A program made the translations under genes and the position numbers. This document shows, piece by piece, positions 1,319 to 17,245 of a stretch of 18,800 nt of DNA. This DNA comes from Desulfobacteraceae bacterium 4572_89 (GTDB lineage Bacteria > Desulfobacterota > Desulfobacteria > Desulfobacterales > Desulfobacteraceae). The notes beneath the pieces are model-generated. The model saw nothing but the letters and a program-made list of their open reading frames with translations. It made no database searches and was not told where the DNA came from. The DNA lies in the NCBI GenBank assembly GCA_002085465.1, contig NBML01000072.1, positions 1 to 18,800 of the forward strand, written 5' to 3'. How positions within the stretch are numbered: the stretch's first letter is position 1; the number at the start of each line of letters is the position of its first letter.

Positions 1319-1480
1319 ACAATCGATTATCCCTCATGTTTTGCCTGGATAGAGGGTAGTAACCTTGTCAGAAATGTATGCGAGTATTTAACGGAACCTG
1401 GATTTGACAGTGTCGTCCGTCCGGACCTCCTTGAAAAATGGGAAGCCTTTGCAGATGCTAAAACCTGGGATTTTTTCTGA
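1319..1480 (+). pseudogene. Unidentified coding remnant (C-terminal piece)
   Basis: This frame opens after a TAA at 1316-1318 and encodes about 53 residues ending at TGA 1478-1480, with no usable start codon inside. The peptide looks protein-like: IDYPSCFAWIEGSNLVRNV, then a charged amphipathic stretch including LLEKWEAFADAKTWDFF. Codon choice matches neighbouring real genes. A ribosome binding site and ATG (1300) just upstream lie in another frame, so the picture fits a gene whose middle was deleted, leaving its start signals and tail. I do not recognise the family. It could be chance, but the composition and the similar damage in neighbouring genes argue for a remnant. Confidence 0.4.
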
Positions 1481-1514
1481 AAAAAGGGATTAAATGGAAT
1501 ATATGGTGATTTGA

Positions 1515-2855
1515 ATGAATACAGAGGCCGTTGTAGACTATATACTCTCCACTGGATGGGATGATTTTCCCGGAATTGTGCAGCACCAGTCCAAAAGATG
1601 TCTTCTTGATGCTTTGGGTGCCATGATTGTCGGAACACAAACACCGGTTTATGAAATCATGCATCAATATGTTTCCATTCAAATGGGGACAGGACCTGCT
1701 GCATTGATGAACAGCGTCCTTAAGAGCAGCACGACCGGGGCTGCTCTGGCCAACGGTTTTGCAGCCAATGCACTGGATATTGACGATGGTTGCAGACTGG
1801 CAAAAGGGCATCCCGGGTCCAGTGTGCTGCCGGTGGTTCTGGCAGCTTCCCAAGGGGCTCATTCCTGTGATGGAAAGCAATTCCTGACCGCTTTGATCCT
1901 AGGATATGAGACGGCCATACGGGCCGCTTATATACGTCACGCCGTCTACTCAGTTTACCATTCATCAGGAAGCTGGGGAGGGATCGGCAGTGCTGCTGCC
2001 GCTGGAAAGCTTTTGAAACTTAATGAAAATGAGTTGTTCAATGCCCTGGGGGTCTCGACGTACCATGTTCCTCTTGCACCCATGATGATAGGGATTGAAA
2101 CGCCCAGCATGGTCAAAGACAGCATCGGATGGGGTGCTTTCGTAGGTATGTCCAGTGTTGAGATGGCCAGATCAGGCTTTACAGGACCCAGATCCATTTT
2201 TGATGAATCTCCTAATGAGGAATGGATCAGTTCCCTGGGACATACCTTTGAAATTATGAATCTGTTTTTCAAACCCTATGCAGCATGCCGCTGGGCACAA
2301 CCTGGTGTTGACGGTGTTCTAAAAATCATGGGTCAGGAAAATCTGACCATTAAAAACATTGGCCGAATACGTATTTATACCTTTTCAGAAGCGGCGGCAT
2401 TGAGCCGGGAATATCCCAGAAACACTGAAGATGCCCAGTACAATTTTTCCTATCCCATTGCCGCTGCAGTGATTCATGGGAAAGTCGGCCCGAAACAAAT
2501 GCTCCCTCCTGTTATATTTGATGAAACCCTGCATCAGATCATGGATAAAATAGAAGTTTTTGTTGAAGACCGGTTTCAAAAAGAATTTCCGGCAAAAACC
2601 CTTGCCGACATTGAGATTGAAGATATTCATGGAAACTGTATCAGATCCGGTGTTATGTCCGCCAGGTGGGATTTGAGCAATACTCTTCCAACGGATAAAG
2701 AACTTAAAGAAAAATTTCTATGGCTTGTTTCGCCTGTTTTAGGGAATGACAAGGCCCGGTTACTTATTGAACTGATTTTCAAGCTGGACCAGTGTGAATC
2801 CATTGATCCGCTTATGGATCTGTGCAAGGGCAATACAGAGGAATGCAAGAGGTGA
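1515..2855 (+). CDS. MmgE/PrpD family protein
   Basis: A 446-residue member of the MmgE/PrpD family, which includes 2-methylcitrate dehydratase, cis-aconitate decarboxylase and iminodisuccinate epimerase; length is typical. Near the N-terminus is the usual helical segment KRCLLDALGAMIVGT (residues 28-42). The family core follows as ANALDIDDGCRLAKGHPGSS (about 84-103), where Asp90/Asp91 and His99 match the conserved active-site region. A Gly/Ala-rich stretch (SWGGIGSAAAAGKLL) and a family-typical FKPYAACRWAQPGVDG region come later. The exact substrate cannot be read from sequence; PrpD-type, racemase-type and other acid dehydratases look alike. The chosen ATG has only a weak upstream GGTGAT. 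The gene precedes an MttB-family gene by about 200 nt and may belong to the same catabolic unit. Confidence 0.85.
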   Translation: MNTEAVVDYILSTGWDDFPGIVQHQSKRCLLDALGAMIVGTQTPVYEIMHQYVSIQMGTGPAALMNSVLKSSTTGAALANGFAANALDIDDGCRLAKGHPGSSVLPVVLAASQGAHSCDGKQFLTALILGYETAIRAAYIRHAVYSVYHSSGSWGGIGSAAAAGKLLKLNENELFNALGVSTYHVPLAPMMIGIETPSMVKDSIGWGAFVGMSSVEMARSGFTGPRSIFDESPNEEWISSLGHTFEIMNLFFKPYAACRWAQPGVDGVLKIMGQENLTIKNIGRIRIYTFSEAAALSREYPRNTEDAQYNFSYPIAAAVIHGKVGPKQMLPPVIFDETLHQIMDKIEVFVEDRFQKEFPAKTLADIEIEDIHGNCIRSGVMSARWDLSNTLPTDKELKEKFLWLVSPVLGNDKARLLIELIFKLDQCESIDPLMDLCKGNTEECKR

Positions 2856-2957
2856 TTCGTGATAAAATTTGCTACACATGGCATCATATCCTGCCTATTG
2901 ACACTTTTTTTGTGGGGTTGATGAGAACTTGAATGTGATTAAATGGATACGGGTAAG

Positions 2958-15364: not shown

Positions 15365-15386
15365 TTTGAATACGCACCTTTTGTGT

Positions 15387-16784
15387 TTATTGGTCTTCTT
15401 CCAGGGGTTTCATGTGATCCGGAATAATCAGCATTTTGAGAATTAAAGGTTTTAGAAAAGACCATTTTATACCGATTTCAAACTCCTCTTCCAGGTCACG
15501 TATGGCATCCCAGCAATTATGGCAGGGGGAAATTACTAGTTTGGCTCCCGTAGCAAGGATCTGATCCCTTTTGACCTTAAGTCCGACGTTCCGTTGTTTG
15601 CGAAAATATCCAATCCCGTTAAATCCGCCGCCCCCGCCGCAGCAGAAGTTATGTTCTTTGTTGGGGGACATGTCTATGAAATAGCCCGGTTCCACAATAT
15701 AGGAGATAATTTCCCTGGCAGTTTCTCTGAGTCCATGGTTCCTCACATAGTTACAGGAGTCCTGGAGAGTGACTGGTTCTTTAATTTTTTTTGCCGGGTC
15801 TATTTTCAGTTTTCCAGTTCGTAATGCCTCGGCCAGCCATTCAATATAATGAATGGACTCAACCGGCGGTCTTCCGCTTTTTCTTCCTACCCAATAGGGA
15901 CCTTCCACAACTGTGGCCCTGTGTGCATGGCCGCATTCAGTGCCTATCATTCGTTTGGGGCGCAATCGTTCCATGGCATCATAAACACTTTCCACCTGCA
16001 TTTTGCAGGCTGCCCAGTCACCGGCAAACATGGCCAGGCTGGTGAGTTCCCACCCCTTTGTCGGTATGGTCCATTTTTCCCCTGCAATATGAAATAATAT
16101 GGCTGCTTCAGCCAGATCTTCGGGATAATGTTTGGCCTCCCTGGCATTGACCGTGTACATGATGTCTGCATCTTCCACATCCACAGGTACGGTCAGGCCG
16201 GGATAATCCTCTTCATACTCTTCCACCATCCATTCAAAGGTATCAATATAATCTTCGCTGGTGATATCCATTTGGGCATTGTAAACCCGATGCATACCAG
16301 CACCTATTTTCATTTCCCAGGGCACAAACCCCTGCTGGTATAAAAGACCCCGCAGATACCCGAACATGATGCCGGTATCAATACCATGGGGGCAATAGGT
16401 GCCGCACCGGTTGCAGCAGGTGCACTGGGCCCAGGCCACTTCCATGGCATGGAGCATGAAGGCATTGTCTACCTTGCCCTTTTTCCGTATGATTTCACCA
16501 AGGGTGGACTGAATTTTATAGGCAGGAACCTGTTTTGGGTCCCTGTCATTTGCAAGATACAGAAAACAGCTGTCAGCACACATGCCGCAGTGGGCACAGA
16601 TTTCAAGCCAGGTTCTGATTCTGGTTTTACAGGTGTTCTGGATTGTTTTCCATAAAAGGTCGGAATCTATTTCCAGATTTTCCATCTCTTCATAGTATGT
16701 TTTGCCGCTCTTGTCCGCAAGAAGGGTTGTGATCCCTTCTGCCGTGTCAACGGGTTTTTTATTGCATAATGTACCTTCCGGCAT
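15387..16784 (-). CDS. hmcF: HmcF-like HdrD-related iron-sulfur protein (two 4Fe-4S + CCG domains)
   Basis: A 465-residue cytoplasmic Fe-S subunit. CAHCGMCADSC (Cys63/66/69/73) and CTCCNRCGTYCP (Cys121/124/127/131) form two ferredoxin-type 4Fe-4S sites. Two HdrB/HdrD-like CCG regions follow: a degenerate one around GDWAACKMQVES and TECGHAHRA, then a full one with LQDSCNYVRNHG, NFCCGGGGGFNG and SPCHNCW. This architecture matches HmcF/TmcB, which pass electrons on the cytoplasmic side of the transmembrane complex. The ATG at 16784 is chosen because AAGGAGA lies 6-7 nt upstream; the frame also has an ATG at 16811 without such a site. The start overlaps the hmcE reading frame by 26 nt. Hmc, Tmc and Nhc paralogues look alike; order favours Hmc. 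Confidence 0.85.
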   Translation of the reverse strand: MPEGTLCNKKPVDTAEGITTLLADKSGKTYYEEMENLEIDSDLLWKTIQNTCKTRIRTWLEICAHCGMCADSCFLYLANDRDPKQVPAYKIQSTLGEIIRKKGKVDNAFMLHAMEVAWAQCTCCNRCGTYCPHGIDTGIMFGYLRGLLYQQGFVPWEMKIGAGMHRVYNAQMDITSEDYIDTFEWMVEEYEEDYPGLTVPVDVEDADIMYTVNAREAKHYPEDLAEAAILFHIAGEKWTIPTKGWELTSLAMFAGDWAACKMQVESVYDAMERLRPKRMIGTECGHAHRATVVEGPYWVGRKSGRPPVESIHYIEWLAEALRTGKLKIDPAKKIKEPVTLQDSCNYVRNHGLRETAREIISYIVEPGYFIDMSPNKEHNFCCGGGGGFNGIGYFRKQRNVGLKVKRDQILATGAKLVISPCHNCWDAIRDLEEEFEIGIKWSFLKPLILKMLIIPDHMKPLEEDQ

Positions 16785-17245
16785 GGATATTCTCCTTGAA
16801 CAAAAATACATGGGACAGCTTTGTAAAGGGAATGGCCACCAGGACCAGTTCGCCTGTCAGGATATGGGTATTTAACCAGAAAGAATAATTTCCAATCTGG
16901 TACCGGGCCATCAGGCCGGTGACAAGGGGTGCCAGTGAGAGTAGTAATACCCCCCAGTCCTTTTTGTCAGTCATGATTCTGACTTCAGACCACACCAATG
17001 TGGAAGCCGAAAAAAGCGGCAGCCATTACAGGCTGGGTTCTCCATCCATAGGTGCCGTAGGGGATCAGCCATTTGTAAATGGATCGGACAGCCCCTTTAA
17101 ATCCCATCATCGGATATTCTTTATAGGCAACTCTGTCAAGTTGCCAGGAAAGTCCTTTAAAATATTGATAAAATCGAATAATCATTCCAATAATACAGAC
17201 CCCGAGTGATACATAAAATACAGGTCCTGTTAATAATCCATGCAT
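16759..17245 (-). pseudogene. hmcE: HmcE-like membrane subunit (NarI-like), internally deleted and frameshifted
   Basis: Two collinear pieces of one integral membrane protein. The first (17245-16985) starts MHGLLTGPVFYVSLGVCIIG, a first transmembrane helix, then WQLDRVAYKEYPMMGFKG and IPYGTYGWRTQPVMAAAFFG, where a second helix begins and the frame ends in TGA. The second piece, in another frame from about 16996 to 16759, has SEVRIMTDKKDWGVLL, a helix SLAPLVTGLMARY and LTGELVLVAIPFTKLSHVF. HmcE and TmcC are about 225 residues; here about 160 remain. Roughly 50-65 residues, including a middle helix and loop, seem lost at the FHIG/SEVRIMTD junction. GGAGG (17251-17255) just before ATG 17245 decides the start over an ATG at 17257. 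In the intact complex this subunit would carry haem b-type His ligands and link the periplasmic and cytoplasmic parts. Confidence 0.8.

What the first reader, a model, noticed from the sequence alone, without database searches (positions are those of the whole stretch)
1319..17245. Cluster of genes broken by out-of-frame internal losses in one 19-kb window
Four recognisable genes (mttB-like, SF1 helicase, cyuA-like, hmcE-like) are each cut by at least one loss that shifts the frame, yet coding quality on both sides remains high. Two more short remnants flank the mttB region. Losses range from about 2 nt to perhaps hundreds. The genes share no pathway or strand, so selection on one function does not explain it. 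The options are recent deletion-driven genome reduction (for example a host-associated sulfate reducer), a mutator background, or an assembly artefact.
Basis: partly seen in the sequence, partly recalled or inferred. Interest (0 to 1): 0.75.

Follow-up and report, generated by a model that had tools for sequence, protein, structure and literature searches.

The report
Four genes with missing blocks: artefact?
In this piece of DNA from a sulfate-reducing bacterium, four otherwise clean genes each lack one or two blocks of 35 to 331 letters that their relatives have, which looks more like faulty joins in the computer-assembled sequence than like real gene decay, so it should be checked against the raw reads before anything is built on it.

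Summary
The breaks are in the record. The remaining pieces are open and, where tested (hmcE, helicase, cyuA; not mttB), about as conserved as in intact relatives. The cyuA pieces match an intact public protein at 417 of 418 residues. The joins share 0-1 nt at their ends in 12 of 13 comparisons, and Ku was found in 0 of 6 genus genomes. One flanking 'remnant' (about 1283-1506) differs: part of a solute-binding protein gene with a stop and small frameshift(s), an ordinary old pseudogene. The other (4474-4567) is unconfirmed. Best explanation: sequence dropped at assembly or scaffold gaps (about 0.7). Real, very recent deletions remain possible (about 0.22); a mutator is not supported. No reads were available to decide. 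Low interest as it stands.

The parts
1283..1506 (+). Part of an ABC solute-binding protein gene (SBP_bac_5 type); internal stop and at least one small frameshift; most of the gene absent on both sides. Old pseudogene, different in kind from the clean breaks
   Evidence: (60 of 291 genomes, best E 1.6e-16); the family name is recalled, no family model was run on the full-length relatives, and the 53-aa peptide itself had no Pfam hit
3054..4476 (+). mttB-like (non-pyrrolysine MttB superfamily) gene, 35 nt missing at ~4111
4474..4567 (+). Possible short remnant after mttB; not confirmed
   Evidence: 1 of 291 genomes, E 0.07; (no Pfam hit)
10736..11737 (-). SF1 (UvrD-like) helicase gene, 331 nt missing at ~11500 and 167 nt missing at ~11339-11352, with a ~160-nt island between
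13514..14771 (+). cyuA-like (serine dehydratase alpha / L-cysteine desulfidase family) gene, 53 nt missing at ~14205
16797..17257 (-). hmcE, 152 nt missing at ~16986 and a further 97-105 nt missing at ~16797 (end of hmcE plus spacer to hmcF), with a ~190-nt island between
15387..16787 (-). hmcF, uninterrupted (control)
17460..18632 (-). hmcC, uninterrupted (control)
5678..10722 (+). soxB-soxD-soxA-soxG-like genes, uninterrupted 5-kb stretch (control)

Best explanation
The six clean breaks are most likely artefacts of the record: where the assembly had no reads or an unresolved gap, the two sides (and twice a short 160-190 nt island between two gaps) were joined directly, so that 35 to 331 nt dropped out. 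The organism would then have intact mttB, helicase, cyuA and hmcE genes. Shown: the blocks missing against relatives, their sizes, the nearly blunt joins, the absence of other lesions in the pieces. Inferred: that the joining happened in the data and not in the cell. The solute-binding-protein fragment near 1283-1506 is a separate, ordinary old pseudogene.
For: Six joins, each a loss of 35-331 nt and none a short indel or a stop. Other internal gaps in those ten alignments are in-frame length differences of the helicase near 11398-11421 (window 6 and 24 nt shorter than L115 and L116, 15 nt longer than L118), offsetting gaps near 11014-11037 against L117, or gaps near alignment ends. The join can be shifted by 0 nt in 10, 1 nt in 2 and 3 nt in 1 of 13 comparisons; Ku was found in 0 of 6 genus genomes. 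Private changes at otherwise invariant columns: hmcE 1 of 85 (relatives' mean 1.0), helicase 5 of 162 (mean 4.3), cyuA 1 of 91 (mean 5.8), against intact hmcF 3 of 322 and hmcC 4 of 238. The cyuA pieces are 230 of 231 and 187 of 187 residues identical to intact P0241 on another public contig. Joins pair around islands of 160 and 190 nt; simulated chance 0.025 (threshold chosen after seeing the data). Four of 17 full genes broken in 18.8 kb, about one per 5 kb, against one per ~19 kb and ~7 kb in two reduced Desulfovibrio symbionts (86 in 1.6 Mb, 188 in 1.4 Mb; PMC7608387, passages), though this window was picked for its breaks. Assembly errors are a documented source of false pseudogenes (PMC11017572, abstract and passages).
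Against: No reads, coverage or assembler are known. The record has no N and its truncated MttB is in the protein database from the 18,800-nt contig, so any gap was closed before that. Random joins should also fall in frame or between genes: 0 of 5 internal losses are in frame (0.13 by chance) and none of the six lies wholly between genes. Pairing inside one gene is also expected if a dead gene takes further hits. The hmcE and helicase pieces do carry a change each at a column invariant in the relatives that looks unfavourable (D to N, D to G), which relaxed selection could explain. The conserved-column count is crude: the intact nitroreductase scored highest (16 of 110, 3 relatives). The old SBP fragment shows that real decay occurs in this genome. 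In Salmonella short deletions are the largest class of single gene-breaking changes (141 of 346), so deletions alone are not odd. Aligned relatives are about 70-87% identical, so exact breakpoints cannot be read.
Confidence: 0.7

Rival explanations
1. Real, very recent deletions: the sampled lineage has lost mttB, helicase, cyuA and hmcE function by nearly blunt deletions within a short time, as in early genome reduction.
For: The joins are in the record and in its predicted protein. The remaining parts of three genes are conserved, as expected soon after breakage. An old pseudogene fragment lies about 1.5 kb upstream of mttB. Most Salmonella pseudogenes are also young and carry one lesion (346 of 378).
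Against: No stop or small frameshift in the pieces of the four genes, although stops make up 131 of 346 single lesions in Salmonella; two of four genes carry two block deletions each, where 32 of 378 Salmonella pseudogenes carry more than one lesion; near-zero end homology with Ku in 0 of 6 genus genomes; a near-identical intact CyuA exists.
Confidence: 0.22
2. Mutator background: a raised mutation rate breaks many genes.
For: Density of broken genes is high (4 of 17 full genes).
Against: A mismatch-repair mutator mainly makes substitutions and 1-nt slips (recalled); 12 of 12 further genes checked with right coordinates are open although some hold runs of 7-9 A or T.
Confidence: 0.03
3. Strain mixture: the contig is a path through several strains, some of which carry real deletions at low frequency.
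For: Near-identical intact CyuA in another public contig.
Against: Would need six deletion variants all chosen by the assembler; island and flank identities to relatives lie in the same ranges (helicase about 68-84%, hmcE region about 69-87%).
Confidence: 0.05

Closest known systems
False pseudogenes created by assembly (Cooley and Wright 2024, PMC11017572; abstract and passages seen)
   Same: Genes look broken although near-identical genomes carry them intact; coverage, platform and assembler are the causes named there
   Different: That study counts frameshifts and internal stops; here the lesions are blocks of 35-331 nt, closer to collapsed gaps
Reductive genome evolution in Desulfovibrio ectosymbionts (PMC7608387; passages seen)
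   Same: A sulfate reducer with several broken genes
   Different: 86 pseudogenes in 1.6 Mb and 188 in 1.4 Mb, i.e. about one per 19 kb and 7 kb; eight relatives of the window measure 3.6-6.7 Mb and no host link is shown
Young pseudogenes of Salmonella (PMC2916853; passages and section 7 seen)
   Same: Remaining sequence little or not accelerated; deletions are a common class
   Different: 346 of 378 carry one lesion and 131 of those a stop codon; here two of four genes carry two deletions and none a stop

Membership tests
Assembly or scaffold-gap artefact | Intact allele in an independent assembly of the same organism | tested here: inconclusive
   CyuA intact at 417 of 418 compared residues in P0241, but its DNA and sample could not be fetched; no such near copy was seen for MttB (best 89%) or HmcE (best 68% to the read-through)
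Assembly or scaffold-gap artefact | Joins without shared end sequence | tested here: met
   0-1 nt in 12 of 13 comparisons, 3 in one, with the limit that relatives are about 70-87% identical
Assembly or scaffold-gap artefact | No reads span the joins | not testable with these tools
   no read data
Reductive (symbiont-type) pseudogenisation | Mixed lesions (stops, small indels, deletions) in the broken genes | tested here: not met
   only block deletions in the four genes; mixed lesions only in the SBP fragment
Reductive (symbiont-type) pseudogenisation | Relaxed selection on remaining coding parts | tested here: inconclusive
   counts at invariant columns close to those of intact relatives for hmcE, helicase and cyuA, but the count is crude and mttB was not tested; recent breakage would look the same
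Reductive (symbiont-type) pseudogenisation | Raised count of broken genes genome-wide | not testable with these tools
   no whole genome held for the window
Mutator lineage | Excess of small slips at homopolymers in otherwise open genes | tested here: not met
   12 of 12 genes open; only this window could be looked at
NHEJ-made deletions | Ku present | tested here: inconclusive
   0 of 6 genus genomes, completeness not given; the control found Ku in 1 of 14 genomes, Bacillus subtilis; the window's own genome is not held
HmcE (NF045716) | Score over the family cut-off | tested here: not met
   the two pieces score 121.8 and 94.1 against a cut-off of 275, as expected of a broken gene; HmcF and HmcC beside it pass theirs
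MttB with pyrrolysine | TAG codon at the pyrrolysine position | tested here: not met
   frame open through the residue aligned with the X of 7xcl; that this X is pyrrolysine is recalled

The most novel reading that the evidence does not exclude
A free-living-type Desulfobacula relative is losing genes through a burst of nearly blunt 35-331 nt deletions that use neither repeats nor Ku-type end joining, breaking about a quarter of the genes in a region before any point lesion or clear relaxed selection is visible.
Probability: 0.1. Interest if true: 0.6.

Novelty: not a real feature. Interest (0 to 1): 0.13.

Why it matters
If it is an artefact, it is a warning that contigs without any N can still hide several lost blocks, which feed false pseudogenes and truncated proteins into databases (the truncated MttB of this record is already in one). 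If the losses are real, they would be an unusually deletion-only, very young burst of gene breakage in a sulfate reducer, and would make the mechanism of repeat-independent deletion in bacteria without Ku open to test.

Tried and rejected
Own-genome search and file: no genome is held, no files are laid. A single-protein scan of genome contigs with SoxA confirmed no relative. Plasmid collection: no match. MttB in 86 family genomes: 61 have a match, best listed identity 57%, so no close mttB DNA could be compared. The nearest SoxA has the same length, 971 aa, so no in-frame loss is seen there. Repeat-mediated slippage: not supported, except that the mttB join can shift by 3 nt. Pyrrolysine readthrough as a cause of the mttB break: rejected, frame open at that site. 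Identification of 4474-4567 failed; a rough resemblance of its end to the MttB C-terminus (E 0.013 against a small local set) was not taken as evidence. Relaxed selection by a conserved-column count: not seen in hmcE, helicase or cyuA, but the intact nitroreductase scored highest (16 of 110, 3 relatives), so the count is crude. A local search with EF-P and cold-shock peptides printed no hits. Papers: none found for the terms; PMC1544356 passages were seen and not used; papers on Hmc were seen only as a listing, as were those.
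Full report
What the window is. The window appears to be the whole of an 18,800-nt record: its own truncated MttB is in the protein database with a longest contig of 18,800. No whole genome is held for it. It belongs near Desulfobacula: the hmc region is about 74-86% identical in DNA to the best Desulfobacula and Desulfobacteraceae MAG contigs. It is not an obvious chimera: the order cyuA-rrf2-hmcF-hmcE-hmcC is the same in L002 and L003, and the helicase lies next to the nitroreductase as in L115, L116 and L118. 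For the mttB-PrpD-sox part no close relative was found among 86 family genomes (best MttB 57%; best SoxA 73%).

The breaks. Frames and families were read. Sizes come from DNA alignments to relatives: mttB 35 nt; helicase 331 and 167 nt; cyuA 53 nt; hmcE 152 nt and 97, 98 or 105 nt depending on the relative. Homologous proteins agree: 117 of 119 listed MttB homologs (two lacked an anchor), 120 of 120 CyuA homologs and 116 of 120 HmcE homologs have one constant number of residues between the anchors (12, 18, 51; four HmcE have 52). After the last preserved HmcE motif, 105 of 120 homologs have 25 more residues, one has 15, and 14 lacked the motif pattern. These lists are the best-scoring 119 or 120 of 1551 MttB, 7984 CyuA and 407 HmcE proteins found. 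All five internal losses shift the frame.

The two remnants. The stretch ~1283-1506 is part of a solute-binding protein gene; in the three contigs with the best matches that were fetched at length (L141-L143) MttB-like genes lie on the same contig. It holds a stop codon and at least one small frameshift and lacks the rest of the gene on both sides. This is what natural decay looks like, and it differs from the four clean genes. The stretch 4474-4567 remains unidentified.

How clean the broken genes are. Against 16 relatives the hmcE pieces have 1 private change at 85 otherwise invariant columns, the relatives' mean being 1.0; the helicase 5 of 162 (mean 4.3, 7 relatives); cyuA 1 of 91 (mean 5.8, 8 relatives) or, against the 3 closest, 23 of 288 (mean 19.0). 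Intact controls: hmcF 3 of 322, hmcC 4 of 238, rrf2 0 of 68, nitroreductase 16 of 110. mttB was not put through this count. Two of the listed changes, one in hmcE and one in the helicase, replace an aspartate that all compared relatives keep. The cyuA pieces are identical at 417 of 418 residues to P0241, an intact protein on a 2,446-nt NCBI contig. So the breaks, if real, are very young, at least in cyuA. Twelve of 12 further genes checked are open to their stop (a thirteenth, hmcD, was given coordinates that were off by one in that script, and its frame is open within an ORF).

Other gaps. In the ten alignments the remaining internal gaps are in-frame length differences of the helicase near 11398-11421, offsetting gaps against one relative near 11014-11037, a start-codon difference in hmcE against L002, and gaps close to alignment ends (including a poorly aligned left edge of mttB).

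The joins. In 13 join-relative comparisons the join can be shifted by 0 nt in 10, 1 nt in 2 and 3 nt in 1 (mttB); the 20-mers around the two ends in the relative are no more alike than random pairs at the 5% level in 12 of 13. Slippage between repeats is therefore unlikely. Ku was found in 0 of 6 genomes of the genus of L003, so end joining of the Ku type is not expected, though the completeness of these genomes is not given and they are not the window's own. Two pairs of joins lie 160 and 190 nt apart; six random joins give two spacings of 190 nt or less in 2.5% of simulations, and eight joins counting the ends of the SBP fragment give three of 225 nt or less in 1.6%; both thresholds were set after seeing the data.

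Weighing. Young natural pseudogenes usually carry one lesion: in Salmonella 346 of 378 have one, of which 131 are a stop, 17% an insertion and 141 a deletion of at most a fifth of the gene (PMC2916853, section 7); its discussion names indels under 10 bp and premature stops as two of the commonest types. Two reduced Desulfovibrio symbionts have 86 pseudogenes in 1.6 Mb and 188 in 1.4 Mb (PMC7608387, passages). Four cleanly broken genes of 17 in 18.8 kb, six block losses, no small lesion, little sign of relaxed selection and nearly blunt ends fit dropped sequence at assembly or scaffold gaps better than a living lineage, and assembly is known to create false pseudogenes (PMC11017572, abstract and passages). 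The argument is indirect: no reads were available, 0 of 5 in-frame losses (0.13 by chance) and the absence of purely intergenic losses do not favour the artefact, and the window was picked because of its breaks.

Verdict. The interpretation stays open, artefact favoured at about 0.7. Interest is low unless reads confirm the joins.

Noticed in passing
window 11740-11876: About 110-130 nt of extra sequence between helicase and nitroreductase compared with L115 and L118, holding an imperfect 41-nt inverted repeat (71% complementary); possibly a small mobile or terminator-like element.
   Followed up: partly
P0143 (368 aa on a 72-kb contig), P0156 (417 aa on a 25-kb contig): Two other MttB homologs among the 119 listed end early in a way that looks like a frameshift; in P0143 the change lies close to the place of the window's mttB loss.
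   Followed up: no
G009: C495 and C502/C604: In this relative MAG contigs end close to the places of the window's helicase 167-nt loss and cyuA loss; could be a coincidence of a fragmented assembly or hint at stretches hard to assemble.
   Followed up: no
window 1515-10722: MttB without the pyrrolysine codon beside PrpD-like and sarcosine-oxidase-like genes (SoxBDAG) with an RpiR-type regulator: a likely methylamine or betaine-type catabolic cluster in a sulfate reducer; function inferred, not tested.
   Followed up: partly
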